Positions 13,067 to 34,269 of a stretch of DNA of 34,269 nucleotides are shown here, in pieces. The stretch's first letter is position 1; every line of letters starts with the position of its first letter. The stretch is taken from the NCBI GenBank assembly GCA_028289185.1, contig JAQGGV010000036.1, forward strand, positions 1 through 34,269, written 5' to 3'. The notes beneath the pieces were generated by a model that saw nothing but the letters and a program-made list of their open reading frames with translations, ran no database searches and was not told where the DNA came from. Source of the DNA: Candidatus Saccharimonadota bacterium. Lineage in GTDB: Bacteria; Patescibacteriota; Saccharimonadia; Saccharimonadales; Saccharimonadaceae. Made by a program: the position numbers and the translations under genes.

Positions 13067-14122
13067 ATGAAGTTGTTGGAATATGAAGGCAAGAAAATAC
13101 TGCAGACTAGCAACATCGCTGTGCCAAAGTCATTTGTTGCAGGTGAGTCGGCTGACTTTTTGCCGGCTGTTCTCAAATCACAAGTGCCCGTTGGCGGGCG
13201 TGGCAAGGCCGGCGGTGTGGTCATCGTAAAGGATGATGCCGAATACACGGCTGAGCGCGAAAAGATTTCGCATCTGGAAATCAAAGGTTACACGCCAAAG
13301 ACTATCTTGGCCGAGCAGCCACTGGACATTGACCGGGAGTTATATCTGTCCCTCGTCATTGATAAAGCAACGGCATCGACCGAGCTGATGGCCCACAAAC
13401 GCGGTGGTGTAGAAGTTGAAGACAACGCAGCCGAGGACTTTTTGAAACTGACACTGGAAACCGGCAGCGCCGATGCAGCCGGACAGCAACTCGCCGACTA
13501 CTACGACCTGCCGGACAAGACCTTCGCACTACAGGATCTGGTAGAAAAGTTGTATGTACTGTTCAATCAACAGGATATGACACTGCTGGAAATTAACCCC
13601 TTGGTTTTGACGAAAACAGGCGAGTTGGTTGCCGCCGACGCCAAAATCACACTCGACGACGCGGCGCAGTTTCGCCACCCCGATTGGTCATTCGAGCTTG
13701 ATCCGGTGGAGACTAACTTTGTCACACTTGATGAAACTGGCAATGTTGCCACAATTGCCAATGGTGCCGGCCTGGCCATGGCGACCGTCGATGCGGTCGC
13801 AGACAACGGTATGAAACCCGCCAACTTCCTGGATATCGGTGGTGGAGCAAACGAAGCCAGCGTACTGGCGGCATTTAAACGCATCACTGAGTACTCCCAT
13901 GTGAAAGTTATCATCATCAATATCTTTGCCGGTATCACCCGTTGCGACGAGGTAGCGCGTGCCATCATCGCAGCCCGCGCGCAGTTGGATGACCTGCCGC
14001 CACTCGCCATTCGCCTAGCCGGTACAAATTACGAGCAGGCAGCGAAATTGCTACAGCAACAAAACATTCCGATTCACGCCAACCTGGATCAAGCACTGGC
14101 GGCTGCAAAGGAACTGACATGA
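13067..14122 (+). CDS. sucC: Succinate-CoA ligase (ADP-forming) beta subunit
   Basis: N-terminal 'LLEYEGKKIL', ATP-grasp 'VGGRGKAGGV', 'NFLDIGGGANEASVLAAFKRI', 'IINIFAGITRCDEVARAI'. Confidence 0.92.
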   Translation: MKLLEYEGKKILQTSNIAVPKSFVAGESADFLPAVLKSQVPVGGRGKAGGVVIVKDDAEYTAEREKISHLEIKGYTPKTILAEQPLDIDRELYLSLVIDKATASTELMAHKRGGVEVEDNAAEDFLKLTLETGSADAAGQQLADYYDLPDKTFALQDLVEKLYVLFNQQDMTLLEINPLVLTKTGELVAADAKITLDDAAQFRHPDWSFELDPVETNFVTLDETGNVATIANGAGLAMATVDAVADNGMKPANFLDIGGGANEASVLAAFKRITEYSHVKVIIINIFAGITRCDEVARAIIAARAQLDDLPPLAIRLAGTNYEQAAKLLQQQNIPIHANLDQALAAAKELT

Positions 14123-14988
14123 ACGCGCAACTGTTAACCGGTAAAAACGTCATCGTTCAGGGAATCACTGGCAGCCACGGATCGTTCCACACTCGCGCCA
14201 TGATTGCGGCTGGTACAAATATTGTCGCAGGCACAACCCCTGGCAAAGCTGGTCAAAACGTTGATGGCATTCCGGTTTATAACTCGATTGTTGATGTCCA
14301 GAACGATATGTCGGTTGATACGAGCGTCATATTTGTACCGGCAGCATTCGCTAAATCCGCAATCCTAGAAGCAATTGACGCAAAAGTTCCGTTGATTGTC
14401 TGTATCACCGAGGGTATTCCGATACATGATATGTTGCAAATCCGACAACATTTAGAGAAGTCGAGTAGCCAGCTAATCGGGCCAAACTGTCCGGGAATTC
14501 TGATGCCCGGCATCATTAAACTCGGTATCATTCCGGCAGCCATGGGACTAGCCGGCACTGTTGGCATCGTTAGCCGTAGTGGCACCCTTACCTATGAGGC
14601 GATGGCTGGTCTGACCGAATATGGGGTCGGCCAAAAATACGTCATCGGTATCGGTGGCGACCCGATTAACGGAACGGGCTTCACCGATTGTTTGGAATTG
14701 TTCCAAAATGACCCAGACGTTGATCGTATTGTGTTGATCGGTGAAATCGGCGGCACAACTGAATACCAGGCGGCAGACTACATAGCCGAACACGTCAGCA
14801 AGCCTGTCTATGCCTATGTAACAGGTCATCACGCACCAGAGGGCGTACAGTTGGGCCACGCCGGAGCTATCTTGGGCAGCCAACAGGAATCTGCCAAAGC
14901 CAAAACGGACTACCTGCGTCGGAATGGTGCCCGTACCTCAACAAGTATCACGAGTCTGCTAACTGCCGTCACCTCTGATAAAAAGTGA
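14119..14988 (+). CDS. sucD: Succinate-CoA ligase alpha subunit
   Basis: 'VQGITGSHGSFHTRAMIAAGTNIVAGTTPGKAGQ', 'GPNCPGI', 'IGEIGGTTEYQAADYI', 'LGHAGAI' carrying the phosphorylated His. 4-nt overlap with sucC. Confidence 0.93.
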   Translation: MNAQLLTGKNVIVQGITGSHGSFHTRAMIAAGTNIVAGTTPGKAGQNVDGIPVYNSIVDVQNDMSVDTSVIFVPAAFAKSAILEAIDAKVPLIVCITEGIPIHDMLQIRQHLEKSSSQLIGPNCPGILMPGIIKLGIIPAAMGLAGTVGIVSRSGTLTYEAMAGLTEYGVGQKYVIGIGGDPINGTGFTDCLELFQNDPDVDRIVLIGEIGGTTEYQAADYIAEHVSKPVYAYVTGHHAPEGVQLGHAGAILGSQQESAKAKTDYLRRNGARTSTSITSLLTAVTSDKK

Positions 14989-19603: not shown

Positions 19604-20947
19604 GTGCAGCATTCTTTATGGCAAAGTGTTTTAGGGGAAATTGAACTGACAATTCCTCACTCCACCTTTATCACTTGGTTCAAGAATACTGAGCTTGTCG
19701 AATCAACCGACGAACTCGTCACGATTGCCGTACCGAATATTTTTGCCGTTCGTCAGTTCCAGGTAAAATTTACCGAGCAAATCAAAGAAGTTCTGGCTAA
19801 AAATGGCGTCGAGCCAGCCAAAATTGAATATATCGTCAAAACCGCCAGCAAGCGCTCGGTCATGAGTCGCGAAACAACCGTCAATTCTCCACTAGCCGAT
19901 CGCCCAAGTATGCGCACGCCACTGGCGCCAATCGGTAGTCTGAATCCTCGCTACACATTCAGTAACTTTATTGTTGGGTCGAGTAATGACCTTGCCTACA
20001 CCGCCTGCCAAGCCGTTGCGCAGTATCCAGGTATTAAATACAATCCTCTCTTTCTCTATGGCGGCGTTGGTTTAGGCAAAACTCACCTAGCTCAAGCAGT
20101 TGGTAATGAAATTATGAAAAACCAGCCAGACGCGCATGTGACCTATATAAGTAGCGAGACATTTGTAAAGGAATTCTTGGATAGTATTCGTTTCAAGAAA
20201 AAGGGTTTTTCGGACAAATACCGCAATGTTGATGTACTGATTATCGACGACATGCAGTTTATCGCCAACAAGGAAAAGACTCAGGAAGAATTCTTCCACA
20301 CCTTTAATGCACTACACCAGAACAACAAACAGATTATCATCACCAGCGATAAACCACCTCGTAGTATCCCTACCCTGACCGAACGTCTACGAAGTCGCTT
20401 TGAGATGGGTATGTCGATCGACATCCAAATGCCAGACTTTGAAACTCGCTGTGCCATCATTGAGGCCAAGGCGGCATTATCAGGTGTTGAGCTTGACCGT
20501 GATACGGTTGAATACCTCGCAAATAACATCAAGACGAACATCCGTGAACTTGAAGGTGCACTTAATCAACTCCTGGCTTATGCCGAGATGCGATCGATTA
20601 CTCCTGACATTACAACGGCTGAGGGATTGCTAGGTAATGTCCGTCGGACTCGCCCACAACATGTGTCCGCTAAACAAATCATCGACAAAACTGCCAAGTA
20701 CTTCTCACTCTCTATAGCAGAGATTTGTAGTGCACAGCGTGACAAGCACATCGTGACGCCTCGTCAGATCGCTATGTACCTGCTTCGAAGTGAGTTACAC
20801 CTCAGCTTTCCTAAGATTGCGATGGAACTTGGCCGCAAAGACCATACAACAGCTATTCACTCCGTCGAAAAGATTGAGAAATCAATCAAACTAGACTTTG
20901 TCATCCGCGAACAAGTGGCGGAAATTCGGGAGCGACTCTATGCCTAA
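19604..20947 (+). CDS. dnaA: Chromosomal replication initiator protein DnaA (GTG start)
   Basis: 'NPLFLYGGVGLGKTHLAQAVGNEI', 'DVLIIDDMQFIANKEKTQEEFFHTFNAL', domain IV 'PRQIAMYLLRSELHLSFPKIAMELGRKDHTTAIHSVEKI'. Confidence 0.98.
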   Translation: MQHSLWQSVLGEIELTIPHSTFITWFKNTELVESTDELVTIAVPNIFAVRQFQVKFTEQIKEVLAKNGVEPAKIEYIVKTASKRSVMSRETTVNSPLADRPSMRTPLAPIGSLNPRYTFSNFIVGSSNDLAYTACQAVAQYPGIKYNPLFLYGGVGLGKTHLAQAVGNEIMKNQPDAHVTYISSETFVKEFLDSIRFKKKGFSDKYRNVDVLIIDDMQFIANKEKTQEEFFHTFNALHQNNKQIIITSDKPPRSIPTLTERLRSRFEMGMSIDIQMPDFETRCAIIEAKAALSGVELDRDTVEYLANNIKTNIRELEGALNQLLAYAEMRSITPDITTAEGLLGNVRRTRPQHVSAKQIIDKTAKYFSLSIAEICSAQRDKHIVTPRQIAMYLLRSELHLSFPKIAMELGRKDHTTAIHSVEKIEKSIKLDFVIREQVAEIRERLYA

Positions 20948-21016
20948 TACACTACTCAGAGCATGGGGAAAACCTGTGCCTTTGCGTCGAAGAACCAGTC
21001 CATTACCTGTCAACGA

Positions 21017-21176
21017 TCATCCACAGTTAGCCAAATCGCACAGAAAACGAACCGACCAAGCAGTGTACAAGTACCGATACCTCCCCATATTTAACCCTCT
21101 TTCCACACACAGCTTTCCACACATCCAAACAGCAATTTTACATCCGTCACACAAACACTTATTCACACTTTCCACA
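21017..21176. promoter_or_regulatory. DnaA-box-like array in the dnaA-dnaN intergenic region (candidate oriC right part)
   Basis: TCATCCACA 21017-21025, CTTTCCACA 21099-21107, 21113-21121 and 21168-21176, TTATTCACA 21159-21167, all in the same orientation. AT-rich AAATTTATAAATCAAG follows at about 21198. Confidence 0.65.
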
Positions 21177-21225
21177 TAGCCTACTAATACAACGACAAAT
21201 TTATAAATCAAGAAAGGTAATAACA

Positions 21226-22329
21226 ATGGAACTTTCCGTCACACAAGAAAATCTTGCTCGGGCACTGGGTGCGGCGTCGCGCGTGGCAAGTTCCAAAACC
21301 CAACTCCCAATACTCAGTAATATCCTACTGCGGACCGACGAACATCGTTTAATGGTTGCAGCAACAAATCTGGAGATTGCATCAACCCACCATATTGGTG
21401 CCAAGATTATTAACGAAGGTGCAATTACTGTTCCTGCACGTTTGATTACTGAATTTGTAACCAGCCTACCTAAAACAGCCGTTACTTTGAAAGTTACCGA
21501 CAATAAACTTCACATCACCGCCGATGGATATAATTCAACAATTAACGGTATCTTGGCCGATGAATTCCCTGAACTCCCAACAATCAATGACAAAACAGCG
21601 GTTAGTTACGCAATTGATACGTCCCTATTAAAACAATCAATTGGGCAAACGATACTAACAGCAAGCAATGACGCGACTCGCCCAGTCCTCACTGGTGTAT
21701 ATTGGCATTCACATAATGGATCACTTTACTTGGCGGCAACTGATGGTTATCGATTGTCAGAGAAAAAACTCATCCCAACAAAGAGTGAAGTGTCGGCGAT
21801 TATCCCAACGACAAGCCTCCAGGAGGTTCTACGTATCCTGAACGAAGACATTAATGAGGTTGAAGTATTATTTGACGAGTCACAGGTTCGTTTCCGTCTG
21901 AATGATGCCGAACTCACGAGTCGATTAATCGATGGTAATTTCCCGGACTATCGTCAACTTATTCCAGCTTCGTCTGAATCGGTTGTTCAGATTCCCCGCG
22001 CTGACTTTGCGCAAATCACGAAGGTCGCCGGATTGTTCGCCCGTGAATCAGGTGGCAGCGTCACAGTGACAGCCGACGCCGAAAAAGACCAACTATCACT
22101 CCACTCTGTTGCCAGTGAACTTGGTGAAAACACCTCCGAAGCTGCTGCCGAAGTAACCGCCGATGGCCAAGTAACACTCAATTCTCGCTACCTAACGGAG
22201 GCGTTAAATGTCATCGACGGCGAAACGGTCACCTTCCGCTTTAGTGGCAAACTATCCCCCTGTGTTTTGTCTGCAACCGACGGCAAAACGACCGATTACC
22301 AGCACATCATCATGCCTCTAAAGAGTTAG
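21226..22329 (+). CDS. dnaN: DNA polymerase III beta sliding clamp
   Basis: 'TQENLARALGAASRVASSKTQLPILSNILLRT', 'TDGYRLSEKK', C-terminal 'CVLSATDGKTTDYQHIIMPLKS'. Confidence 0.97.
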   Translation: MELSVTQENLARALGAASRVASSKTQLPILSNILLRTDEHRLMVAATNLEIASTHHIGAKIINEGAITVPARLITEFVTSLPKTAVTLKVTDNKLHITADGYNSTINGILADEFPELPTINDKTAVSYAIDTSLLKQSIGQTILTASNDATRPVLTGVYWHSHNGSLYLAATDGYRLSEKKLIPTKSEVSAIIPTTSLQEVLRILNEDINEVEVLFDESQVRFRLNDAELTSRLIDGNFPDYRQLIPASSESVVQIPRADFAQITKVAGLFARESGGSVTVTADAEKDQLSLHSVASELGENTSEAAAEVTADGQVTLNSRYLTEALNVIDGETVTFRFSGKLSPCVLSATDGKTTDYQHIIMPLKS

Positions 22330-22330
22330 T

Positions 22331-23365
22331 ATGATCATACAGTCACTGTCTGTTGAAAACTTTCGTTCACATAAGAAATTTTCACGCTCACTATCAGATA
22401 CAGTGACGGTTATTACAGGCCCAAATGGTAGTGGTAAAACATCGCTTATCGAGGCAATTATGGTTGCACTCGGCGGCAAGTCGTTCAAGGGAACGGATAG
22501 TGAATTACTTCGTCGCGGAGCTGACTGGTGGCGCGTAGATGTGAAGTTGGATAACCAGGACCGAACAGTGAAATATCAGCCGGATGCGCCCAAGAAAAAA
22601 CAATTCATCGTCGATGACAAAGCAAATATTCGTTTACCAACCACGTCGCGCTATCCAATTGTCTTGTTTGAACCGGAGGACCTTCGTCTATTGCATGGTT
22701 CCCCGTCGCGTCGTCGGCAGTTTATAGACCGGTTTGCGGCAGAATTGATACCTGATTACGGAAAGGTCGTCCGGCGCTATGAGCGGGCTCTGCTGCAGCG
22801 CAACAAGCTACTAAAGCGTCGGGTTGCAACCGACGAACTATTCGCCTGGAATGTTAGTCTGGCAAAATACGGTGCGCAAATGATTGATATGCGTGTGCGC
22901 CTCATTGAGCGTTTAAATGCTGGGCTGCAACCAACCTATAACACGATCGCCCAAACAAGGGATGTTGTGTCGCTACACTATTCCCATACGGTTATTGACC
23001 ATACGGAACAGAAATTATTATCAGAACTTGAGGCGCGGACTGAACGTGATCAAATCCTGGGCTTTACTAGTATCGGTCCACACCGACACGACGTGTTATT
23101 TCGATTCAACGATGCACCGGCGATTGGGTCGGCGTCGCGTGGTGAAGTTCGTACGATTATTTTGGCACTCAAATTCCTGGAGGTGGACATTGTTCAGCAG
23201 GTCACCGATCAGCCGCCAATTGTGCTGCTTGATGACGTCCTGAGTGAACTTGATGACAAACGTCAGTCACACTTGGCGACGAAATTCCAAAACCACCAAA
23301 TCATTATGACCAGCACTAACCCACCGGAGGTTCTGGGAAGCGCAAAAGTTATACGTTTGCGCTAG
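22331..23365 (+). CDS. recF: DNA replication/repair protein RecF
   Basis: 'LSVENFRSHKKFS', Walker A 'GPNGSGKTSLIEAI', 'SPSRRRQFIDRF', 'IGPHRHDVLF', 'SASRGEVRTIILALKFLEV', 'PPIVLLDDVLSELDDKR'. Confidence 0.96.
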   Translation: MIIQSLSVENFRSHKKFSRSLSDTVTVITGPNGSGKTSLIEAIMVALGGKSFKGTDSELLRRGADWWRVDVKLDNQDRTVKYQPDAPKKKQFIVDDKANIRLPTTSRYPIVLFEPEDLRLLHGSPSRRRQFIDRFAAELIPDYGKVVRRYERALLQRNKLLKRRVATDELFAWNVSLAKYGAQMIDMRVRLIERLNAGLQPTYNTIAQTRDVVSLHYSHTVIDHTEQKLLSELEARTERDQILGFTSIGPHRHDVLFRFNDAPAIGSASRGEVRTIILALKFLEVDIVQQVTDQPPIVLLDDVLSELDDKRQSHLATKFQNHQIIMTSTNPPEVLGSAKVIRLR

Positions 23366-23837
23366 CGGCGGGGGTCGCATCGTCGCCCGGCAAGCTAATC
23401 GCTTTATTGATTTCATCTAGGATGGATTCTGGTACGTCAGGAAATTCAACGGTTGAAAGAAGTGGACGAGGTGGCAACGTGCGGAGTATCCATATCCCCT
23501 GCTTTTTTTGCATGAGGACGCGCAGCGTATCGCGATTTAATGAATCGGTTCCCTTGTACGAAAGGGTTGTGCCATACCACTGACCCTGGTCAAATAACTG
23601 ACCCTGATTAATTAAGTAGTTAGTCTCAACCAATGGGTAACTTGCGGTTAGGACGCTGGTGATTGTTGGTTGCTCGGCTTTTAGTTCTGCCGCTAGTTCA
23701 GTTTTGCTGATTGGCTGAACGGTGGCGACGGGCTTTGGGATAGGTTTGGGAGCGGTCGCTGCGCCATAGGCAACCGAACCAGCGCCAATGATAATCGCCG
23801 TGGTAACGATTAGGATGAATTTTAGTCGATCGCTCAC
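23349..23837 (-). CDS. Small membrane-anchored exported protein (cluster A)
   Basis: N-terminal TM 'FILIVTTAIIIGAGSVAYG', low-complexity Pro/Lys linker, folded C-terminus. Overlaps the recF 3' end by 17 nt and the upstream gene by 4 nt. Confidence 0.7.
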   Translation of the reverse strand: MSDRLKFILIVTTAIIIGAGSVAYGAATAPKPIPKPVATVQPISKTELAAELKAEQPTITSVLTASYPLVETNYLINQGQLFDQGQWYGTTLSYKGTDSLNRDTLRVLMQKKQGIWILRTLPPRPLLSTVEFPDVPESILDEINKAISLPGDDATPAASANV

Positions 23838-24478
23838 TTCTTCACCCCAGTAACAAGTGGATTCTTGAAATCCTTAAAAACAATCTTGAAATCAGTCGGA
23901 TCGTAACCAAGCTGTCTGATTTTTTCGACGGCATAAAAACGATAGCGTGGTGATGGCGTCGTGATTGTGAGTGTGATGGACACGTTGTCATTGTTGGTAA
24001 TGTAGCCGATAGTGAAATATGGATCCTGGAACGGTAGTTTAGAAGTTATTGGGTTAAGACTGCTAAAATATTGGCCGTTTACATTTGCCTCGATTGCACC
24101 ATACTCCTCGTTTTTCTGGTAATCGTCGGCGTGGTTGTTTGCCCATTTCTTGGCATCATCGCTTGATGCTGTCAGTGACAAAGCAACGACGTTTTGGGGT
24201 TTATCGCCAGATACGAGGACTGTTTTGGTGAGTGTTTGGTATCCATCCTTTTTAGCGGTAACTGTGTAGCTACCGTCCTTTACCCAATCGGTGCCGTTGC
24301 CTTCACTCTGCCCATTGAATGTAATCTGGGCATCGCTTGGCACGGCGCTGACAACGACGCCGGTTTTGCCCTGACGGATCGCGTAGGTATAAATGGCGCC
24401 ACCGATAATCAGAGCAAAAATGACAACGCATACAATAACGATACGACGTTTGTTTCTTTGGATGAGTTCGTAGTACAT
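23834..24478 (-). CDS. Membrane-anchored PEGA-domain protein (cluster A)
   Basis: N-terminal TM, then 'GVVVSAVPSDAQITFNGQSEGNGTDWVKDGSYTVTAKKDGYQTLTKTVLVS', a PEGA-like repeat. Confidence 0.75.
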   Translation of the reverse strand: MYYELIQRNKRRIVIVCVVIFALIIGGAIYTYAIRQGKTGVVVSAVPSDAQITFNGQSEGNGTDWVKDGSYTVTAKKDGYQTLTKTVLVSGDKPQNVVALSLTASSDDAKKWANNHADDYQKNEEYGAIEANVNGQYFSSLNPITSKLPFQDPYFTIGYITNNDNVSITLTITTPSPRYRFYAVEKIRQLGYDPTDFKIVFKDFKNPLVTGVKK

Positions 24479-25776
24479 TACTTTGGCGCCTCCGTCAGAG
24501 CGACTGATTTACGGTACCAATCAAATGACGTGTCAGTCGCGCTTTCGTGGCCAGCCATTGGTGAACGCTCGGGTCCGCCAAGTGACGCCGAGGCGATCTT
24601 TGAGCCAAAGCCTGGAATTTGGCCAACGTAGACATAGGTGTGTTCGCTATTTACGGCCACATCACCGGGCTGGCGTTTGCTGGCATCACGAACATCGCTG
24701 TCGCTAATCCTGGTCCAGTTTTGCTTTAGCCACGCTTCCTGTGCTGTTGTTGCACCACCATGGCCATTTGAGTTGTAGCGCTTTTCGAAACCACTATTTA
24801 TCATTAAGCGCGTGACGAACCCGCCACAGTCATTGCCGCCATTGCCACCGGTATATTCACCGAGGCTAGCGGCTTTACGAACAGCATCGGCATAGGCTGG
24901 TTCTTGGTCGGTGCGAACGGCGTATTGTGGCCAGGCATACGCCAGTGTTGTCTTGCCCAGGTCACCGCCCGAGAAGCCACCAGCGGTACAGGAACCGCCT
25001 GTGGTTGTGGACGATCCGTCTGTTGGTAGGTTATTACTCATTGAACCGACGACATCCGGTGATGGTGATGGTGATGGTTGCGTTGTGCCGCTTGTGTCGG
25101 GTGCACCCTGGCTGCCGTTGGTTGATCCGGCGAGTGCTGGTGCATCGACGTATGCATCATAGAATTTCTTGGCGTTACCGCCACGGACCGAAACGACCTT
25201 TTCGTGCGAGTCGGCCGAGCTTTCGTAGCCGTCATGAACAGCGACCGCAGCCTGCACGGGATCATCGGTTGCTTTGAGTGCGCTCAATGTTTGCGGGTAG
25301 TTCTCGGACAATTCTTTCCAGGCATAGGCTAACTGTCCATTCAGGTTTGTGATATCGACTCCGAGTGACGCGGTTTCTTGTACAAGTCCTTGTTGTCGCC
25401 CGCCAGATGTCCACTGTGCTAGCCCAAAACCAACACCAGCGCTCGGTTTGAAATTACTTCCGGCAGTTGCGTGTGAACCGCCCTGAATGATTGTTGGGTC
25501 GAGTCCGGACTCCACTTCGAAGTTACCGGCAATGCCTGCTGCTTGTGCTAGTGTTAGCCCCTTTTTCATAAAGAATTGCAGGATGTTTTCCAAATTATTT
25601 TTGCCAGTCAACGTCATGATGCCATCGGATGTTTCGCTCGGACAGGTTGGGTCATAGAACAGGATGCTGTTGTTCGAAAAGAAATTCTCGTCAAAACCCT
25701 TCGCCTCGACTACATTGACCAACTGCGACAGGACGATAATAGTCACAAACATGTAACTAAGTAATCGCCGAATCAT
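24478..25776 (-). CDS. Secreted phage-tail-lysozyme-like protein with C-terminal NlpC/P60-CHAP-like domain (cluster A)
   Basis: 'QFFMKKGLTLAQAAGIAGNFEVESGLDP...GVGFGLAQWTSGGRQQGL', PSPSPSP linker, 'DCGGFVTRLMINSGF' and 'QPGDVAVNSEHTYVYVG' (Cys/His motifs). Confidence 0.8.
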   Translation of the reverse strand: MIRRLLSYMFVTIIVLSQLVNVVEAKGFDENFFSNNSILFYDPTCPSETSDGIMTLTGKNNLENILQFFMKKGLTLAQAAGIAGNFEVESGLDPTIIQGGSHATAGSNFKPSAGVGFGLAQWTSGGRQQGLVQETASLGVDITNLNGQLAYAWKELSENYPQTLSALKATDDPVQAAVAVHDGYESSADSHEKVVSVRGGNAKKFYDAYVDAPALAGSTNGSQGAPDTSGTTQPSPSPSPDVVGSMSNNLPTDGSSTTTGGSCTAGGFSGGDLGKTTLAYAWPQYAVRTDQEPAYADAVRKAASLGEYTGGNGGNDCGGFVTRLMINSGFEKRYNSNGHGGATTAQEAWLKQNWTRISDSDVRDASKRQPGDVAVNSEHTYVYVGQIPGFGSKIASASLGGPERSPMAGHESATDTSFDWYRKSVALTEAPK

Positions 25777-28766
25777 GTTGAAACCCCGCTTGCGACCGGT
25801 CGCGCGCCTTCAACAATCGATGTTGGGTCAATCGATTTGCCGCCGGCAAGTGGCGATCCATCCCATACTTCAAAACGGAGATGGGGGCCGTTTATCATGT
25901 CGGCGCTACCGATCTTCGCAATTTGATCCCCCGCCTTCACTTTCTGATTAACGGACACTAGTACACCGTCATCATCGATATTTCCATAAACACTGTAGAA
26001 TACTTTGCCAGTGGCATCGGCATCGTGTTGGATAACAACCCAGTTGCCGTAACCGTCTGCTTTGCCAGCGGCGACAACAATCCCATCCTTGGCGGCGTAA
26101 ATTGGTTGCTGATTGGTTAGTGCCACGCTACTTCCGGCCAAATCAACTCCAGTAAAGCCACTGTCGCCAAATTTGCGTGTAATCAGGTCGCTGGCAACGG
26201 TCGGAAAGACCCAACCGTTTGGTCCAGCTTTAGCCTTGGTGTTGTCGCCGGCTCCGGTTGTAATTGGCGTTGATTGTTCGTGATCCTTTTGGCCCCCGTC
26301 TACTGATAGGTCCATGGTGTAGGTACGAAAATGCATGTTCAGCGGTTCGTTTTCCGTGCTATAGCAGGCGCTGCCATCACCTTGGTCTTCGTCGCTGCCA
26401 TCACCGTATGGCTGTGTTCGATTGACGCATTGAGTCATGAATTTAACGTAGTTCCATGATTGACCATTGTCCTTTGCCTCGCCCGTATCACTGTCTGGAT
26501 CGATGTTGCCTGTGTCGGACATCCACTGGGCGTTGTCGAGCGGGTCAAGATTTAGGCTATTCTGTGGCATGTAGTGACGGACGACACAGCCAGGGTCGGC
26601 TTTGATACTATACGATTGGTAATCCAGGTCTGGACAAGAGTTGAAATATTCGTCTGGCAACGCATTTGCCGCATGGACAGTTCCGGAAATGGTTGCGAAT
26701 GTTGTCGGAATCAGGCTGGCCATATTCATCATGGCGACCGACGTGTTTTGGCGTGATTCTAGGATTGTCGGTGTAAAGTTGAACAGCATCGATCCCAGGA
26801 ATGAATAACGATTGTTTACATCAAATGGTGTACCTCGTGCTAGGTACTGCTGGTCCTGATTGTAGGCCGATGCCGTTTGGCGGTTCTGACTGATGTAATC
26901 CATACCTGCTTGGTCGGTGACTGGTGGCATGCCGCGTGCTTGAGCAATGTCACTCAGAAGTGCATCAGTACCGTTGCCAACTACCTCACCAGCATCGAGA
27001 CCATATACATTGTTGACGATATTACCAGTCATGATGTCGCCAATTTTTGCTTCGATTGCTGGTTGTGCGATGCTCCAGGCAACAGATAAACCAGCCTGGA
27101 CCGCCGTGGCTATACCGAGCGTTGCGGCACCGGTGACAACTCCAAGCCCCAGTGCGCCAATACGTACAAAACCATTTCGAACGACGCCGCAGGCTTTGTT
27201 GATTGCTTTAGGATTGGAATTACCACCTGTCACAACCTTGGATACGGCGGAACGAATGGCGTCAATGATGGCGGCAGAGCCACCGGTGAATGAGAATTTC
27301 GATGCGCGCGATGACATCTTTTCCATGATGCCAGACGATTCTACCTTGTAACGGAACGAGTCGAATGCGTTGCCACCCTTCTCGGGGTCACTTATCAATG
27401 GAAGCTTACCTGTTGAGGGGCTACTTAATTTTGAATCATCGATAACTTGACTGTCTGGTTGCGATTTCATCAAAATATTACCAGCAAAGTTTGTCGCCTC
27501 TTCACTTGCATCACCGGCTTTGGTTTTATCCGCGAGTGTCAGTACGAGTGCTAACGCTTCTCTTATTTCCTGTTGTTTTTGGACGGTTTTGGCAGCAATG
27601 CTAATATCGCCCAGACCTGTCCACGCGCTACAGGTGTTCTCGGCTATTGAGTCGACCGCAACTGCTTTTTCGGCTGTTCCTGCGACAACACCAGTCAGCC
27701 CGCCTGCTTTTTGTAGAACGCTTGCGTTGTCAGATATTTTGCCAGCCTCATCGACTTGTGATTGCGAGAGTGTATGGCCGCTATCGTCGGTATATGTTGT
27801 GTTGCCATCCTTGTCGGTGTGTTTTGTCAGGCTGGCGGCCTCGATATTTTCCTGGCCACCGGCGATGTCGTTGAGTTTTTTCTGGCGCTCCTCGTCGTTC
27901 TGCCCGGTAAGGTCATAATTTTTGCTGGCCTTGTCTTTGGCGAAAACCTCTCGACTAGTTGGGTCGCTGACGCTTTTGAAGGTTGGATTATCGACGGTAC
28001 CCCACGCAGTGCGAAAACCTTCGCTGTTTTGGAGCGCTGCGCTGAACTGGTCGGCAGTTCGGTAGACTTCAGGCGCTTTGCCCTCGTCGGTAAAGACGAT
28101 ACTTGCAATCTTGCCCTTACCATCGACGATATCGGTTCGGTTGATTTTGATTTTTTCATTTTTGCTTTCGAAGTCTTTCACCTCGTTGTCGGTCATTTCG
28201 CCAAGCTCGCATTTGATCTTAACGGCGCCACACGGTTCGGCGCCCCCGGACTTAAACTTGGCTTTTATGAGTGAGGTTGAGCGGGAGTCAACAGCCTTGA
28301 GCTGGTCGTTGAACGATTGGGTAAAGATTTCTTTCATCTGCACAATTGCCGATGCTGGTGCAAACATGACGGTCATAAATCCACCACCACCAACTAATAA
28401 TGAAACAGCAGTCAACATAGATGCTTTGCTACGGAGATTTTTGCCAGTAAAGAGTTGCTGAATTTTGGCAGGTTTGTTTTGCGCTGCGGCGGGCGTGCCG
28501 ATGCTTTTGATGAAGCTGCCTCGTTCCTCGCCGTCGCGTACGCCTAGGACATCGTTTGCAACATCGGCTTGGCCACGGCCAAGTCCGGCATCGTGGCGGT
28601 TGGACGAGAGCTGCGAGCCACTATAAAAGTCCGGCTCCACAGGGGTTCCAGCTTGTTCCGTATGACGAAGTTGCGCACTTGGTAAATGGGCATACTTTTC
28701 GTCCTGATTTTTAGTTAGATTATCAGCTCTCACAACAGAGGTCTCAATTCGTGTATATTGTACCAC
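25773..28766 (-). CDS. Large (997 aa) membrane-anchored protein with C-terminal degenerate M23/LytM-like domain (cluster A)
   Basis: TM 'ASMLTAVSLLVGGGGFMTVMFAPA', second hydrophobic region 'IGALGLGVVTGAATLGIATAV', C-terminal 'GVDLAGS...IYAAKDGIVVAAGKADGYGNWVVIQH...VKAGDQIAKIG...GPHLRFEVWDG'. Confidence 0.8.
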   Translation of the reverse strand: MVQYTRIETSVVRADNLTKNQDEKYAHLPSAQLRHTEQAGTPVEPDFYSGSQLSSNRHDAGLGRGQADVANDVLGVRDGEERGSFIKSIGTPAAAQNKPAKIQQLFTGKNLRSKASMLTAVSLLVGGGGFMTVMFAPASAIVQMKEIFTQSFNDQLKAVDSRSTSLIKAKFKSGGAEPCGAVKIKCELGEMTDNEVKDFESKNEKIKINRTDIVDGKGKIASIVFTDEGKAPEVYRTADQFSAALQNSEGFRTAWGTVDNPTFKSVSDPTSREVFAKDKASKNYDLTGQNDEERQKKLNDIAGGQENIEAASLTKHTDKDGNTTYTDDSGHTLSQSQVDEAGKISDNASVLQKAGGLTGVVAGTAEKAVAVDSIAENTCSAWTGLGDISIAAKTVQKQQEIREALALVLTLADKTKAGDASEEATNFAGNILMKSQPDSQVIDDSKLSSPSTGKLPLISDPEKGGNAFDSFRYKVESSGIMEKMSSRASKFSFTGGSAAIIDAIRSAVSKVVTGGNSNPKAINKACGVVRNGFVRIGALGLGVVTGAATLGIATAVQAGLSVAWSIAQPAIEAKIGDIMTGNIVNNVYGLDAGEVVGNGTDALLSDIAQARGMPPVTDQAGMDYISQNRQTASAYNQDQQYLARGTPFDVNNRYSFLGSMLFNFTPTILESRQNTSVAMMNMASLIPTTFATISGTVHAANALPDEYFNSCPDLDYQSYSIKADPGCVVRHYMPQNSLNLDPLDNAQWMSDTGNIDPDSDTGEAKDNGQSWNYVKFMTQCVNRTQPYGDGSDEDQGDGSACYSTENEPLNMHFRTYTMDLSVDGGQKDHEQSTPITTGAGDNTKAKAGPNGWVFPTVASDLITRKFGDSGFTGVDLAGSSVALTNQQPIYAAKDGIVVAAGKADGYGNWVVIQHDADATGKVFYSVYGNIDDDGVLVSVNQKVKAGDQIAKIGSADMINGPHLRFEVWDGSPLAGGKSIDPTSIVEGARPVASGVST

Positions 28767-28852
28767 AAAATTGTTTTTGTGTAAATAAAATTATAGAGAT
28801 GAATAGGCTTGTGGCTAAATGGGCTCATTCACTGTGTCATAATGGTAATGAT

Positions 28853-29536
28853 ATGACGTCCTATCAGTTGTTTTTGTGGCTATCGGTTTTTGTGGCGACG
28901 ACTGTTGAGATGGTCGAGGCGTTAACAATTATCTTAGCGCTTGGCATTACTCGTGGCTGGCGGACAGCACTTATTGCAACGGGGGCGGCAATCGTGACAC
29001 TAGCGGTAGTTGTGGCGATTTTTTACTCGATATTTGCACGTGTCACCGGCGAGGGAAACGTGCCGATTATGCCACTTTGGGCACTCGTCGGCGGCCTGCT
29101 ACTTATCTTTGGTTTGCAGTGGATGAAAAAGGCGATTCTGCGTATTGGTGGTGTATTAGAATCGCGTGACGAAGAAAAAATATATAAAAGACTCACCGCA
29201 AGTGCAAAAAAGGCACCCAAAAGTAAAAAAGATTCGATTGATTGGTATAGCTTTGTTTTGGTATTCAAGGGTGTACTGTTGGAGGGATTTGAGGTTGTCT
29301 TTATCGTGATCATCTTTGGCAGCGCGAGGGGCGAAATTGGGATTGGGATTGGCGCATCACTTGCAGCGCTTTTGTTTGTTGCGCTACTTGGCGTCGTAAT
29401 CCATAAACCACTATCGCGCGTGCCAGAAAGCTGGATGAAACTGACGGTAGGAATACTGTTGACAACATTTGGAACGTATTTCGGCTCTGAGGGCGTTGGG
29501 ATTATATGGCCGCTTGGTGAGTGGGCGCTTCTGTAA
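28853..29536 (+). CDS. FTR1/COG4280-like polytopic membrane permease
   Basis: Two ExxE motifs in TM segments, 'ATTVEMVEALTIILALG' and 'KGVLLEGFEVVFIVIIFG'. Start moved to MTSYQLF (28853). Confidence 0.65.
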   Translation: MTSYQLFLWLSVFVATTVEMVEALTIILALGITRGWRTALIATGAAIVTLAVVVAIFYSIFARVTGEGNVPIMPLWALVGGLLLIFGLQWMKKAILRIGGVLESRDEEKIYKRLTASAKKAPKSKKDSIDWYSFVLVFKGVLLEGFEVVFIVIIFGSARGEIGIGIGASLAALLFVALLGVVIHKPLSRVPESWMKLTVGILLTTFGTYFGSEGVGIIWPLGEWALL

Positions 29537-29628
29537 TTATTAGTGATTTATGTAACATTCTCGCTGTTTATGATTAATTTCCTTCGTGCGGGCGATCCTA
29601 TACGCGACTTGGTAGCGGACAAAAAATC

Positions 29629-30249
29629 GTGAAATACATTCGCAGTTTTTTTGGCTTTTGGCGCAAATTCATCGTTGGTGATGATGCACGAATCGCGGCA
29701 GTAATTATGTGGTCCCTTCTATTTATCGATTCTTTGTCACGAAATTACATCAATGCTTGGTTTGTATTGCCAGTAGTAGTAATAATAATGCTTGGGGTAC
29801 TTACCTATGGGTCAACTTTGCGGCAGCCACGTGTCAGACTTTCACCTATAGTGAAGTTGCTTTTGACGAGCACGGTGCCGATGCTACTAGTCATAGCTCT
29901 CCCGCCAATACTGTCACGTATTACGAGTAATGAATGGGGTGTTGAGTACATACTATTACCACTTGCTATCTACGTTGCCTACTCGATTGTCCTTGCTGCA
30001 CTAATGCGTCTCGGACTTCGCTCATATCCGGCTCTCTCTACTTTTATATTGGGTCTGGCATCACTGTATCTGATTGTCTATAGGCAGGACAAAATCAATG
30101 AATTCTCGCAGGATTTGACGAGGCAGAATTCACTTGGTTTGGCTGCTGCCATCACTATTTTGATCGCTATTGTTATCGCTGTTCTCGTGCTGGAATTCAA
30201 ATTCCGACACAAGCAAACTATTGAAGATACTGGAAGTTCAGCACGTTAA
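29629..30249 (+). CDS. Hypothetical polytopic membrane protein
   Basis: 206 aa with about 6 hydrophobic segments. Its 3' end overlaps the convergent gene by 32 nt. Confidence 0.6.
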   Translation: MKYIRSFFGFWRKFIVGDDARIAAVIMWSLLFIDSLSRNYINAWFVLPVVVIIMLGVLTYGSTLRQPRVRLSPIVKLLLTSTVPMLLVIALPPILSRITSNEWGVEYILLPLAIYVAYSIVLAALMRLGLRSYPALSTFILGLASLYLIVYRQDKINEFSQDLTRQNSLGLAAAITILIAIVIAVLVLEFKFRHKQTIEDTGSSAR

Positions 30250-31642
30250 CGCTTGCGCTATCAAGAGTCTTTGAGCTAACAATGGAATTCTTTGTCGTAT
30301 TCACACAGTCCTGATTAGTCGAGTTTCTCTTCATAACAATTGATGTTGCAGAGAAATTCATGACGTTGGCAATACAAATAGGTGCGCTGCTAGGTAGTAC
30401 GACGAGGAGCTTCTGGGCAACCGACGAATCGTTTGTCGGCTGTTGATTGTTCAGACCGAATCGGTATAAATCCAGGGTCGTGATGGCAAATCCAGTACGA
30501 TCAACGGTCGCATATACATAGGCATGGTCGTCGCTCATACGGATATCCGAGAAATTACCAACGAGCGGATCAATCGCTGCAACCTTGTCGGATTTGCCAC
30601 TATCGAGACTATAGCGCCATATATCACTCCCCTGGATATAGAGGATTGTATTATCGTCGATCCAGATCGGTGCAACGACATTATTATCTGGCATTTGAGC
30701 AATCTTGTTCAGCTGGGTGTCGAACACACCTGTCAGCTCACCACTCGTTACCAACTTGTTCCCGGATGGCGACCACGCTGCCTCGTACAATTCGCCAGCA
30801 ATTTGATATTTCGTTCCGTCGTTATGCAGAACTGCAATGCTCGTCGGGCGACTTGCGCCGCTTGGCTGCTGGGTAATTTCGATTGATTGATTCGATGCCG
30901 ATCCTATACGTACGTAATCGCTACTTGAATAGACTTTTGTAAATGAACCGTCGCCATTTGCGCTGTAAATGATGTGACCATCAGAAACATACCACCTGCC
31001 GTCGGGTGCAACTGAAAAACCAATATCCCCCGTGACTTTGAACGGCAAAGTCACATTACTGATTGACTGTCCCTGGATTTTGACAATTTCATAATCAACA
31101 GCGCCAGTTTTTACCAGTCCGATACCAAAGGAATTAGTGCCCCATTTAATTGTTTGGAACGACCTACTCCCACCTAGTACCGAGACATGATTGCTTGAGT
31201 CAACATTATAAAGTGGATAGTTTGCATCATTGCGATCGATGAACGACAAGTGGTCACTTGACGCAGTGACCGCGTCTGCGCCTAGGGATGTTATAGGTAT
31301 CAGATTACCCGTGATAGTTGTTACGATGCCGGCGTTGAGGTTGACTGCTTTACGTTCTCCAAAAGATAGTTTGACGACCTGCCTGGTGGAAGTGGATGCG
31401 CTCGCGACAACGATGGTATACGTACCTGGCTCGACCCTAACGACCGCTTGTTTGGTGTTTTGGGTGACATCAATTGGATGTGAATTTGGGGAGTTCTCTT
31501 GCAGCGTGATGCTATTTGTTGCGTCTGAGGTTGTAATCGTGAGCGTCGCATCCGCAAAAAAGCTATACACTATCCATGCGCTGCCTATGAGGAATAGAAC
31601 AATGAGGCTGTATAAAAGGATTGATCGTTGTTTTGTTGTCAT
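30218..31642 (-). CDS. Membrane-anchored protein with PEGA-like domain and beta-propeller-like repeats (cluster B)
   Basis: TM 'ILLYSLIVLFLIGSAWIVYSFF', 'ATLTITTSDATNSITLQEN...VRVEPGTYTIVVASASTSTRQVVKLS', then propeller-like 'VAPDGRWYVSDGHIIYSANGDGSF', 'AAWSPSGNKLVTSG'. Start moved to MTTKQRS. Confidence 0.7.
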   Translation of the reverse strand: MTTKQRSILLYSLIVLFLIGSAWIVYSFFADATLTITTSDATNSITLQENSPNSHPIDVTQNTKQAVVRVEPGTYTIVVASASTSTRQVVKLSFGERKAVNLNAGIVTTITGNLIPITSLGADAVTASSDHLSFIDRNDANYPLYNVDSSNHVSVLGGSRSFQTIKWGTNSFGIGLVKTGAVDYEIVKIQGQSISNVTLPFKVTGDIGFSVAPDGRWYVSDGHIIYSANGDGSFTKVYSSSDYVRIGSASNQSIEITQQPSGASRPTSIAVLHNDGTKYQIAGELYEAAWSPSGNKLVTSGELTGVFDTQLNKIAQMPDNNVVAPIWIDDNTILYIQGSDIWRYSLDSGKSDKVAAIDPLVGNFSDIRMSDDHAYVYATVDRTGFAITTLDLYRFGLNNQQPTNDSSVAQKLLVVLPSSAPICIANVMNFSATSIVMKRNSTNQDCVNTTKNSIVSSKTLDSASVNVLNFQYLQ

Positions 31643-31655
31643 ATATTCATATATC

Positions 31656-33026
31656 CTATGCGTTAACCGCGCTATCACCGCCCCATTTCGGCCAATTTGC
31701 CGGTGGTGGGGTATGGCTTGATCCACACTCAGAGTGGAGGCTGTCGTGTTTTAACCCAAGCGTTTGCAGGAATTTATCGACATCAACACCGCTATTCGAG
31801 GGGAAACTACCTCCACATATCGATTTATTATAGTCACTCCACTCCACATATCCCGTTCCCCCACCCCCCGAAGCCCAACCCGTTTCCAGTTCTGTGCCGT
31901 GGTCTTGGTAGTCACATATTGATTTGTTCGTGTCGACAGTATCACCTACCTTTACCGTGGGTGTGCAATCCTCAGCAATGTACATAAATAGGTCTTTCGC
32001 TTTACCGGATGTTATCTTGTATTTGACGTACGCGCCGGGGCTTCCGGGCCACCCTGATCCACTCGCATCAACGAGGACAATCTGGGCCGGGCAGGCGGCG
32101 TAAATCGGCCCCGACCCCCCTGTGCCACCATAGTCGTAGCCACCGTCAATGCGTGAAACGCTAGAGTTCTTTAGGTCGCGGAAAGGGTTTTTACATTCGC
32201 CGTTGTCCGCAGCCACACTATCACACGACGAACCTGACGAAGCGGCTGAGCTTGTTGCGCTGCTAGTGCTGCTCGTGGGACTGATGCTGCCACCTACTCC
32301 CGCCGGTAGCGACTGGCCGTTAACGATTTCGTTATATATATCCGTCGCGTTTTTTTCACGATTGTTATTACCGTTTGCTTGGTCCGTTGATACTTCGTAA
32401 TCATGGTCAAAGATAAGCGCATCCTGCGATGCAGGCTGGCCTTTCATTTTATTAAGCATAGGGCCGTAGCTTTGATCTAATTCCTGCCAAGCGTATTCCA
32501 ATTGCGCGCCTAGGCAGTCTGCTGGCTTGCCCTGAGCAGCGATAAAAGCCTTGGCTTTGGTGATACGGTCGCCACACCACTGGGCAATGCCAAACGCTGC
32601 AGATGACCCACAGCCTGACCCTCCCGCGACGTAGGAGTTTAAATTACTTTCCTGGCGCCAGTTGCCCATAATACCGGCTGCTGCATTTGCGGCATCGTCT
32701 TTACTAAAGCCTTTTTTGACCAACTGGCCGGTCAAGTAATCCCATATTTGCTGTTCGTTCGCCTTGTCATTGCCACCCTTGTTACCGCAACCACCAGCGT
32801 CACCATTGCCGACTGAAGCGTCACTACTTGAGCCCGATGAGCTACAACTATGATCGTAGTACAGGACATCGTTTGTTTCGCGATACCTGCGTTCTAGATC
32901 GTCAGCCGATGCAGTTGCCGAGGGGGCCACGGCGTGCGCCAGTGGCGATAGACCGGCATTGAGTAGGCACGCCAAAAGCAGTGTCGCCATCCGGAAACGG
33001 CGAAACAATTTGTCAAACTTTATCAT
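31656..33026 (-). CDS. Secreted phage-tail-lysozyme-like protein with C-terminal LytM-fold-like domain (cluster B)
   Basis: 'GFSKDDAANAAAGIMGNWRQESNLNS...AAFGIAQWCGDRITKAKAF...CLGAQLEYAWQEL', Ser/Thr-rich linker, then 'SRIDGGYDYGGTGGSGPIYAACPAQIVLVDASGSGWPGSPGAYVKYKI...PTVKVGDTVDTNKSICDY...ELETGWASGG'. Confidence 0.8.
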   Translation of the reverse strand: MIKFDKLFRRFRMATLLLACLLNAGLSPLAHAVAPSATASADDLERRYRETNDVLYYDHSCSSSGSSSDASVGNGDAGGCGNKGGNDKANEQQIWDYLTGQLVKKGFSKDDAANAAAGIMGNWRQESNLNSYVAGGSGCGSSAAFGIAQWCGDRITKAKAFIAAQGKPADCLGAQLEYAWQELDQSYGPMLNKMKGQPASQDALIFDHDYEVSTDQANGNNNREKNATDIYNEIVNGQSLPAGVGGSISPTSSTSSATSSAASSGSSCDSVAADNGECKNPFRDLKNSSVSRIDGGYDYGGTGGSGPIYAACPAQIVLVDASGSGWPGSPGAYVKYKITSGKAKDLFMYIAEDCTPTVKVGDTVDTNKSICDYQDHGTELETGWASGGGGTGYVEWSDYNKSICGGSFPSNSGVDVDKFLQTLGLKHDSLHSECGSSHTPPPANWPKWGGDSAVNA

Positions 33027-33520
33027 AACGCCTTCCTGACTGCATCTGGCAGCGAAATGTACTGCGGCGGAAAGTCCGTACCGGGCCCAGCGACGACCGT
33101 CAGTGGGCTATTTGCGTTGCCTGTCTGTTGGAATATAACCTTGTTCGGCTCGGTACCCGTTTTAGTGACGGTGACGACAAACCATCCAGGTAGCGGCTCC
33201 TTGATATCGGTTATTCCGAATCGCACTTGGCCGTCTGCATCGGCAGCAACACCGTTAGTCTGTAGGATCGCATTGTAATAATCCTGTGTTGTGGGTGGCG
33301 CCTGGGCGACGGTTGCTTGGCTGCTGTTAGCGCCGGAATTGGTCGTGGACTGCGCGCCTGCACTACTATTCGGAACGACTGTTTCACCCTGTTTCACGAC
33401 TGATTTTGTGGGCGTGTCGAACTTTTGGCCCGCAGTTTTTTGTAGTAGAAAATAACCAATGATAGCAACGAGGATAGCTATTCCTATAGCGCCGATGATG
33501 ATAAGTCGTTTTCTATCCAT
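33023..33520 (-). CDS. Small membrane-anchored exported protein (cluster B)
   Basis: MDRKRLIIIGAIGIAILVAIIGYFLLQ TM anchor, Ser/Thr/Asn linker, folded C-terminus 'GWFVVTVTKTGTEPNKVIFQQ...FPPQYISLPDAVRKAL'. Start set at 33520, just after the upstream stop. Confidence 0.7.
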   Translation of the reverse strand: MDRKRLIIIGAIGIAILVAIIGYFLLQKTAGQKFDTPTKSVVKQGETVVPNSSAGAQSTTNSGANSSQATVAQAPPTTQDYYNAILQTNGVAADADGQVRFGITDIKEPLPGWFVVTVTKTGTEPNKVIFQQTGNANSPLTVVAGPGTDFPPQYISLPDAVRKAL

Positions 33521-33524
33521 AGTT

Positions 33525-34269
33525 TTATACCGACACCGTTCCGCCCTTGAATCGTAGGACAAAACTACCGTTCCCCTGTTCATTACCAGGCGAGGGACCA
33601 AAACCAGGACCGCAACCCGTGGTGTGGGATCCAACCGTAGAGAACTTGCCACCGTTTACACCCGTGATAACTTCAACGTGTGCGTCGCACCTGATAGCCA
33701 TGTCACCGGGTTGGGCTTGTGCCTGCGGGATCTTTTCATAGAATTTTTTTGGTCCGCTGGCGTCGGCGCACATATCCTGCGTGGACATTGACCCCGTATC
33801 GGTGCCCGTTGCCTGGTAGACAACAGCCCTTGTGAAGCCCGAGCAGTCGACGCCATTTTCGGGCCCAGCAAAATGGGCAGCAATGCGCCGTTGCAAATCC
33901 GCGAGATCCCCGTGGCCACCGCCGTCGGTGTAGCAGGCTTGATACTGCCCGCCCCATCCACCCATAGCCGCTGCTTCTTGGGCAATATTCCCTGTTGGCG
34001 CAGTACTGCTGGCGGCGCTGTTTGCTTCGGGTGTTTTGTCGGTACAACTTTTTACGCGTTTGGATGTGGCGTACTGCACGTAGCACCAGTTGTAATACGT
34101 CGCATAACTGTCCATCGTCGGGTTTGATTGCGCACACTTTGAGCCATCAGTCCAGTCATAATTATCGGCGGTTATCGACGCGGTTGATGATCCAATTGGC
34201 ATTATGCCCTTTCCGTCATCCGCAGTTCGCTGTGTACAGTACTTAACGTAGTTATCGAACTCGGAATCG
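33525..34269 (-). CDS. Large protein, C-terminal part with NlpC/P60-like domain (cluster B; N-terminus outside window)
   Basis: Frame stays open to the window edge (DSEFDNYVKYCTQRTADDGKGIMPIG...). 'NGVDCSGFTRAVVYQATG', 'QPGDMAIRCDAHVEVITGV'. 'NYVKYCTQRT' resembles 'NYVKFMTQCVNRT' of the 997-aa cluster A protein. Confidence 0.75.
   Translation of the reverse strand, partial: DSEFDNYVKYCTQRTADDGKGIMPIGSSTASITADNYDWTDGSKCAQSNPTMDSYATYYNWCYVQYATSKRVKSCTDKTPEANSAASSTAPTGNIAQEAAAMGGWGGQYQACYTDGGGHGDLADLQRRIAAHFAGPENGVDCSGFTRAVVYQATGTDTGSMSTQDMCADASGPKKFYEKIPQAQAQPGDMAIRCDAHVEVITGVNGGKFSTVGSHTTGCGPGFGPSPGNEQGNGSFVLRFKGGTVSV

What the first reader, a model, noticed from the sequence alone, without database searches (positions are those of the whole stretch)
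23349..34269. Two paralogous operons of secreted/anchored cell-wall-active proteins with shuffled gene order
Seen: two minus-strand sets with overlapping or near-abutting genes. Set A (23349-28766) runs large TM protein, lysozyme-like protein, PEGA protein, small anchored protein. Set B (30218 to window end) runs large protein, small anchored protein, lysozyme-like protein, PEGA/propeller protein. The same four kinds of protein occur twice in different order, separated by two unrelated plus-strand membrane genes. Inference: a duplicated exported machine for cell-wall remodelling, DNA uptake/secretion, or attack on host-cell peptidoglycan. If the organism is an epibiotic Saccharibacterium, the last option is attractive.
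Basis: partly seen in the sequence, partly recalled or inferred. Interest (0 to 1): 0.85.

Follow-up and report, generated by a model that had tools for sequence, protein, structure and literature searches.

The report
Doubled cell-wall-cutting kit of secretion machine
Two neighbouring gene sets beside the replication origin of an ultrasmall Saccharibacterium encode the cell-wall-cutting part of its type IV secretion machine, one set kept nearly constant and the other re-equipped with different cutting domains in each relative, as might be expected if the second set is fitted to the walls of different host bacteria.

Summary
Both minus-strand sets are at the stated coordinates. They are the peptidoglycan-hydrolase segment of the chromosomal Saccharibacteria T4SS. 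In relatives the order is VirB6-PrgI-TrsD-VirB4-LARGE-LYS-PEGA/PROP-small, running convergently into recF-dnaN-dnaA. LARGE directly follows virB4 in 50 of 55 loci. This genome's virB4 lies on contig C49 with the first ~690 residues of large protein B, whose end is cut by the window edge. The muramidase domain of LYS is homologous to that of PrgK, the VirB1-type hydrolase encoded just after virB4 in pCF10. Only two A/B pairs are clearly homologous: the LARGE anchor and the lysozyme domain. The sets are ancient paralogues with unlike C-terminal modules. The "shuffled order" is different slot use, not rearrangement. New here: in 10 tandem genomes set A is constant (M23; lysozyme+NlpC/P60, once with an added SGNH domain) while set B has 7 architectures, although VirB4 stays 85-97% identical. 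In this genome A's M23 has lost two motif residues, as PrgK's LytM is degenerate. Best reading: VirB1-type wall breaching for the T4SS, set A for the epibiont's own wall, set B probably tuned to the host's. The last step is inference.

The parts
25773..28766 (-). LARGE_A: ~120 aa N-terminal part, membrane segment near residue 126, cysteine-bearing outer region, C-terminal M23/LytM domain (849-985) with two of four motif residues replaced (FTGVD, HLRFE)
   Evidence: Pfam M23 1e-20; anchor has no Pfam, NCBIfam or PDB match; ligand check against the other M23 domains
24478..25776 (-). LYS_A: signal peptide, Phage_lysozyme2 muramidase (56-213, catalytic Glu kept), NlpC/P60-type domain (271-423, DCGGFV and GDVAVNSEHTY kept)
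   Evidence: Pfam 4e-30; alignment with PrgK muramidase; motif check
23834..24478 (-). PEGA protein: one membrane anchor, PEGA domain, conserved C-terminal domain (NPI..LP ... GYDPTD)
   Evidence: Pfam PEGA 8e-7; alignment A2
23349..23837 (-). small_A: one membrane anchor and a conserved outer domain; in most relatives a PEGA-like domain lies between the two
   Evidence: alignment A1; small vs PEGA profiles 96.7%; fold unresolved
33525..34268 (-). LARGE_B, C-terminal 247 aa: NlpC/P60-type domain (DCSGF ... AHVEV); cut by the contig end. The N-terminal 692 aa are on G000:C49:50-2128(-), with an in-frame TAG 49 nt from that contig's edge and about 54 residues unseen
33023..33520 (-). small_B: one-anchor protein in the optional slot between LARGE and LYS; start taken as the ATG of MDRKRL
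   Evidence: sequence; related proteins in L052 and L062; C-terminal similarity to small_A by profile
31656..33026 (-). LYS_B: signal peptide, Phage_lysozyme2 muramidase (88-235, catalytic Glu kept), then an M23-like domain without its HxH motif (278-424)
   Evidence: Pfam 9e-23; domain scan and motif check
30218..31642 (-). PROP: one-anchor protein with a long outer region (propeller-like, fold not confirmed); takes the PEGA slot in set B
   Evidence: no Pfam family above cut-off; profile link to PEGA weak
28751..29536 (+). tmX: ~5 membrane segments, inserted between the sets; not part of the conserved module
   Evidence: found with tmY in only one other locus of 62 (G043, L035), there in the opposite orientation
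29629..30249 (+). tmY: 6 membrane segments, partner of tmX; not part of the conserved module
19604..23365 (+). dnaA-dnaN-recF, the conserved origin-side neighbours that the module runs into convergently
   Evidence: Pfam; 57 of 58 loci show a convergent gene facing recF or dnaN

Best explanation
Sets A and B are tandem copies of the peptidoglycan-breaching (VirB1-type) module of the chromosomal Saccharibacteria type IV secretion system. LARGE is a T4SS-associated membrane protein that carries one wall-active domain outside the cell. LYS is a Sec-exported muramidase with a second wall-active domain. PEGA, PROP and small proteins are single-anchor outer scaffold proteins, plausibly doing what PrgL (VirB8-like) does in pCF10. 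Together they would open and line a path for the secretion channel through peptidoglycan. Set A, the constant copy, would serve the epibiont's own wall, and its degenerate M23 here would act as a binding or regulatory domain. Set B, the variable copy next to VirB4, would be fitted to the wall of the host it grows on. Shown: synteny, domain content, ancient paralogy, A-constant/B-variable contrast. Inferred: enzyme activity, assembly with the channel, division of labour, host targeting.
For: VirB4 and PrgI lie directly upstream in relatives; own VirB4-LARGE_B contig found; LARGE follows virB4 in 50 of 55 loci, median gap 12 nt; same locus in 10 sampled genomes of other families of the order; VirB4 in 187 of 196 family genomes. 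pCF10 has the same order PrgI-VirB4-PrgK-PrgL, and the LYS muramidase profile hits PrgK's muramidase at 1.9e-22, hhalign 98.6%. PrgK combines a degenerate LytM, a muramidase and a CHAP domain and binds PrgL (PMC11323569). The T4SS is essential for epibiotic growth in S. epibionticum (PMC10633639), including peptidase and lysozyme genes directly downstream of virB4 (PMC12102498). A third LARGE without a hydrolase lies beside a second VirB6-like gene in this genome. Set A 2 architectures, set B 7; 4 of 1024 within-genome label swaps as extreme. VirB4 85-97% identical while LARGE anchors are 23-41% and LYS 33-54%.
Against: No activity data. The LARGE anchor matches no known T4SS subunit. PEGA and small proteins show no sequence link to PrgL and the structure prediction failed. 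The join between C49 and the window is inferred from relatives, not assembled. C49 carries an in-frame TAG in LARGE_B, so set B's large protein could be broken. Fast divergence could also reflect relaxed constraint. The A-versus-B contrast rests on 10 related genomes, so the swap count is not a phylogenetically corrected probability.
Confidence: 0.75

Rival explanations
1. Both sets only remodel the epibiont's own wall so that the T4SS and pili can be assembled; the variety in set B follows variety in the epibionts' own peptidoglycan or neutral domain exchange.
For: This is the established role of VirB1-type enzymes (PMC12857230); LYS and LARGE carry an export signal or a membrane segment.
Against: A single constant set would suffice; set A is nearly constant across genera while set B changes between genomes with over 90% identical VirB4.
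Confidence: 0.3
2. Set B enzymes are effectors released onto or into the host, comparable to antibacterial T4SS effectors, rather than parts of the apparatus.
For: Variable C-terminal toxin-like modules on a constant N-terminal part; putative effectors next to the TM7x T4SS have been proposed (PMC10768705).
Against: LYS has a Sec signal peptide and LARGE a membrane segment, so neither looks like a T4SS substrate; no immunity gene was recognised; no coupling protein was sought here. The TM7x array called Sec-secreted has been reinterpreted as VirB2 pilins (PMC12102498).
Confidence: 0.15
3. Set B is a decaying duplicate: its large gene is interrupted, its M23-like domain is degenerate, and the variety reflects relaxed selection.
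For: In-frame TAG in LARGE_B 49 nt from the contig edge; M23-like domain of LYS_B lacks HxH; LARGE_B anchors diverge strongly.
Against: LYS_B keeps the muramidase Glu and fold motifs; LARGE_B's NlpC/P60 keeps Cys and His motifs; the closest single-set relatives kept a B-type set, not A; the TAG lies at a contig edge, where assemblies are least reliable.
Confidence: 0.12

Closest known systems
T4SS cluster SEML1_0006-0019 of Ca. Southlakia epibionticum ML1 (PMC10633639; PMC12102498)
   Same: Chromosomal Saccharibacteria T4SS with low locus numbers, with peptidase and lysozyme genes directly downstream of virB4; essential for epibiotic growth
   Different: Read here from papers only, its proteins were not compared; a second, module-swapped hydrolase set is not described in the parts of those papers read
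PrgK (VirB1-type, DELTA class) and PrgL of plasmid pCF10 (PMC11323569)
   Same: Same position after PrgI-VirB4; homologous phage-tail-lysozyme muramidase; combined with a degenerate LytM and a cysteine peptidase-type domain
   Different: One protein in pCF10; here the domains are split over LARGE and LYS, with exchangeable C-terminal modules, a new anchor family, and the whole set doubled
TraG of pIP501 and other two-domain VirB1-like enzymes
   Same: Glycan-cleaving plus peptidase-type domain, as in LYS_A
   Different: From the literature (PMC12102498, PMC11323569); not compared by sequence here
Degenerate LytM regulators such as EnvC, ActS, DipM
   Same: LARGE_A's M23 domain matches ActS (3e-13) and EnvC models below cut-off and has lost two motif residues here
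   Different: The other nine recF-proximal copies in the main clade keep the motif, so degeneracy is specific to this genome among those compared

Membership tests
Patescibacteria (MPF-FATA-like) T4SS locus | VirB4 ATPase adjacent | tested here: met
   C49 VirB4 with LARGE_B N-terminal part directly downstream; adjacency in 50 of 55 loci. The C49-to-window join is inferred
Patescibacteria (MPF-FATA-like) T4SS locus | PrgI/VirB3, TrsD and VirB6-like genes in the cluster | tested here: met
   PrgI PF12666 at 1.9e-12 in L051; homologues on C49 by profile. VirB6 and TrsD are named by position, membrane segments and size, without a Pfam match
Patescibacteria (MPF-FATA-like) T4SS locus | Location next to dnaA (reported for many, not all, Patescibacteria) | tested here: met
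   dnaA-dnaN-recF at 19604-23365
Patescibacteria (MPF-FATA-like) T4SS locus | VirB2-like pilin array | not tested
   not searched in the own genome; a pilin-like C-terminus was seen on C39 by eye only
VirB1-type T4SS peptidoglycan hydrolase (PrgK/TraG) | Muramidase or SLT domain homologous to the reference | tested here: met
   LYS profile vs PrgK residues 544-720: 1.9e-22; hhalign 98.6%; catalytic Glu kept in both window copies
VirB1-type T4SS peptidoglycan hydrolase (PrgK/TraG) | Cysteine peptidase-type (CHAP or NlpC/P60) domain in the module | tested here: met
   NlpC/P60-type domain with Cys/His motifs in LYS_A and LARGE_B; no direct homology to PrgK's CHAP found
VirB1-type T4SS peptidoglycan hydrolase (PrgK/TraG) | LytM/M23 domain (PrgK; absent in TraG) | tested here: met
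   M23 in LARGE_A; profile link to PrgK LytM weak: 7e-5, hhalign 25%
VirB1-type T4SS peptidoglycan hydrolase (PrgK/TraG) | Anchored in the membrane with outer catalytic domains | tested here: inconclusive
   LARGE has a hydrophobic segment by simple hydropathy; LYS has a signal peptide and no other anchor
VirB1-type T4SS peptidoglycan hydrolase (PrgK/TraG) | Peptidoglycan-degrading activity | not testable with these tools
   needs purified protein
VirB8-like scaffold (PrgL/TraM) | Sequence similarity to PrgL | tested here: not met
   no match of small or PEGA profiles; weak NTF2-like PDB hit 3h51 at E 0.38 is not significant
VirB8-like scaffold (PrgL/TraM) | NTF2-like outer domain after one membrane anchor | tested here: inconclusive
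   one anchor present; model pLDDT 43.6

The most novel reading that the evidence does not exclude
Saccharibacteria carry an exchangeable wall-breaching arsenal on an otherwise frozen T4SS: a constant hydrolase set for passing their own wall and a second set in which muramidase, endopeptidase, amidase, glycosidase and esterase modules are swapped onto constant parts to match the peptidoglycan of different hosts, with LARGE as a new T4SS subunit that presents the module.
Probability: 0.35. Interest if true: 0.82.

Novelty: new variant of a known kind. Interest (0 to 1): 0.62.

Why it matters
How an epibiont's T4SS crosses two walls, its own and the host's, and what sets host range in Patescibacteria, are open questions. 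This locus offers a direct handle: a nearly invariant secretion core, a constant hydrolase set, and a second set that changes modules between close relatives. If set B follows host wall chemistry, host range could be predicted from sequence and tested by gene removal in the tractable laboratory strains. It also adds a widely conserved Saccharimonadales protein family (LARGE) to the T4SS locus.

Tried and rejected
Shuffled operon: rejected, the small genes occupy different optional slots. Recent duplication: rejected, A and B fall in different supported clades. One single origin of all tandems: rejected for G021 and G018, whose two copies pair within the genome. VirB8 membership of the small or PEGA proteins: no sequence support, PDB and Pfam searches empty, AlphaFold without an alignment failed; loci fetched from whole genomes are not among the sequences that the structure tool says it accepts, so no deeper alignment was sent. 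Finding relatives in viral contigs gave none. The single genome-contig scan found only M23-domain hits in unrelated bacteria, so organism names are missing and 'Saccharibacteria' rests on gene content, synteny and literature. LARGE anchor as a known family: none found. M15 as a name for the CD..HPxG.AxD...HxH module: Pfam finds nothing, only a weak PDB link (9flh, 2e-7), so it is called LAS-like.
Full report
What was checked. Set A: 25773-28766, 24478-25776, 23834-24478, 23349-23837. Set B: 33525 to the end, then 33023-33520, 31656-33026 and 30218-31642 with the likely starts. Pfam gives M23 (1e-20) in LARGE_A, Phage_lysozyme2 in both LYS proteins (4e-30, 9e-23), PEGA (8e-7) and a sub-threshold NlpC/P60 in LARGE_B. 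The window is a whole contig, C47 of an 80-contig, 770 kb genome estimated at 82% completeness, so LARGE_B is cut by the contig end. The rest of the window holds dnaA-dnaN-recF, yidC and jag, and surface-polysaccharide genes.

What it is. In relatives the same genes follow the core of a type IV secretion system. PrgI (1.9e-12) and VirB4 (1.1e-27) sit directly upstream. This genome's VirB4 is on contig C49, in the order VirB6-like, PrgI, TrsD-like, VirB4, then 692 residues of LARGE_B. Alignment to relatives leaves about 54 residues between the C49 piece and the window fragment. C49 shows an in-frame TAG 49 nt from its edge; I cannot tell an assembly artefact from a real interruption. Relatives such as G094 and G043 have virB4 and both sets on one contig, which supports the join. 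The genome nearest by VirB4 (G006) is also the nearest by dnaA.

How conserved. VirB4 is found in 187 of 196 genomes of the family. In 62 annotated loci LARGE follows virB4 on the same strand in 50 of 55 cases with a median gap of 12 nt, and the gene facing recF or dnaN is convergent in 57 of 58. Ten sampled genomes of other families of the order show the same locus. A sequence profile of the LARGE anchor finds it in 5 of 144 genomes drawn across the phylum, all of the same order. That is a sensitivity-limited result.

Link to known wall hydrolases of T4SSs. In plasmid pCF10 the order is PrgI, VirB4, PrgK (annotated phage tail tip lysozyme), then PrgL. The lysozyme profile built from these loci hits PrgK residues 544-720 at 1.9e-22 and 98.6% by hhalign. 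The conserved Glu of the GN...ES motif is kept in LYS_A, LYS_B and PrgK. PrgK has a degenerate LytM, a muramidase and a CHAP domain, the outer two restraining the muramidase, and it binds PrgL (PMC11323569). Here the same kinds of domain are split: set A has M23 on LARGE and muramidase plus NlpC/P60 on LYS. Set B has NlpC/P60 on LARGE and muramidase plus an M23-like domain on LYS. The partner of the muramidase is thus exchanged between the two sets.

Degenerate domains. LARGE_A's M23 reads FTGVD and HLRFE where intact relatives read HxGxD and HLHFE; the other nine recF-proximal copies of the main clade are intact. LYS_B's M23-like domain lacks HxH. In PrgK a degenerate LytM regulates rather than cuts; that the same holds here is inference.

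Paralogy. In a tree of LARGE anchors ten A copies form one supported clade, and the window's B copy groups with other B copies and with single-set relatives that carry the propeller-type gene. The three close relatives G005, G007 and G008 hold only a B-type set. G021 and G018 made their own duplications. Tandem doubling is therefore old in this lineage and arose at least three times in the sample. The tree is a quick one with some long branches.

Constant and variable sets. Across ten tandem genomes set A is M23 plus muramidase-NlpC/P60 every time, once with an added SGNH domain. Set B shows seven architectures, including LAS-like, NlpC/P60 or M23 on LARGE, and SLT-M23, muramidase-LAS-like, M23-muramidase, GH3, amidase and esterase combinations on LYS. 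Only 4 of 1024 within-genome label swaps give a contrast as large. That count ignores shared ancestry. VirB4 is 85-97% identical to the window's, while LARGE anchors are 23-41% and LYS 33-54%.

Other parts. Small_A in most relatives has an extra PEGA-like domain (profile 96.7%), and small_B shares its C-terminal domain with small_A (94%); PEGA and PROP are not shown to be related. Whether small and PEGA proteins are VirB8-like could not be decided. A third LARGE in this genome, on C39, lies directly after a second VirB6-like gene and has no recognised hydrolase domain, which suggests that the LARGE anchor itself is a T4SS component.

Mechanism proposed. LARGE sits with the T4SS in the membrane and presents one wall-active domain; LYS is exported by Sec and cuts glycan strands nearby; PEGA, PROP and small proteins form the outer scaffold; the channel then passes the wall. 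The T4SS is essential for epibiotic growth in a related strain (PMC10633639) and so are the peptidase and lysozyme genes after virB4 (as reported in PMC12102498). I infer that set A serves the own wall and set B the host wall. The first part (VirB1-type module of the T4SS) I hold at about 0.85, host tuning of set B at about 0.35.

Novelty. The Saccharibacteria T4SS, its place near dnaA, and its downstream peptidase and lysozyme genes are known. I did not find the second set, the exchange of modules or the constant/variable contrast in the papers searched, but that search covers open-licence text only and no supplements.

Noticed in passing
window 11919-14988 (+): An OpgC-like succinyl/acyltransferase gene (OpgC_C, 2e-35) is followed directly by both subunits of a succinyl-CoA-ligase-type enzyme, between glycosyltransferase genes. 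Two close relatives (L058, L060) lack this block at the same place; possibly a local succinyl-CoA supply for surface-glycan modification.
   Followed up: partly
G000:C39 (locus L113) 2229-7090 (+): A second VirB6-like gene is followed directly by a third LARGE protein without a recognised hydrolase domain; a neighbouring opposite-strand protein ends in a pilin-like hydrophobic stretch.
   Followed up: partly
window 28751-30249 (+): The two membrane genes between the sets occur together in only one other locus examined (G043, L035), in the opposite orientation relative to the sets; a small inversion or independent insertion.
   Followed up: no
L056 (G000:C49) about 50-52 (-): In-frame TAG in the LARGE_B reading frame close to the contig edge, with coding similarity continuing after it.
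   Followed up: partly
L067:6048-8885: A set-B protein joins an esterase-like (GDSL), a beta-lactamase-like (PF13354, 1.5e-17), an SLT and an NlpC/P60-type domain in one chain.
   Followed up: no
L101 and L108 (G057:C14 and C51): Two different copies of the module-recF-dnaN-dnaA region are present in one genome bin, which suggests a mixed bin.
   Followed up: no
alignment A4, e.g. L066:5277-5846: A C-terminal module with invariant CD...H..G.xxD...HxH residues is not recognised by Pfam and only weakly by PDB (9flh); a probable undescribed LAS-like wall peptidase family.
   Followed up: partly
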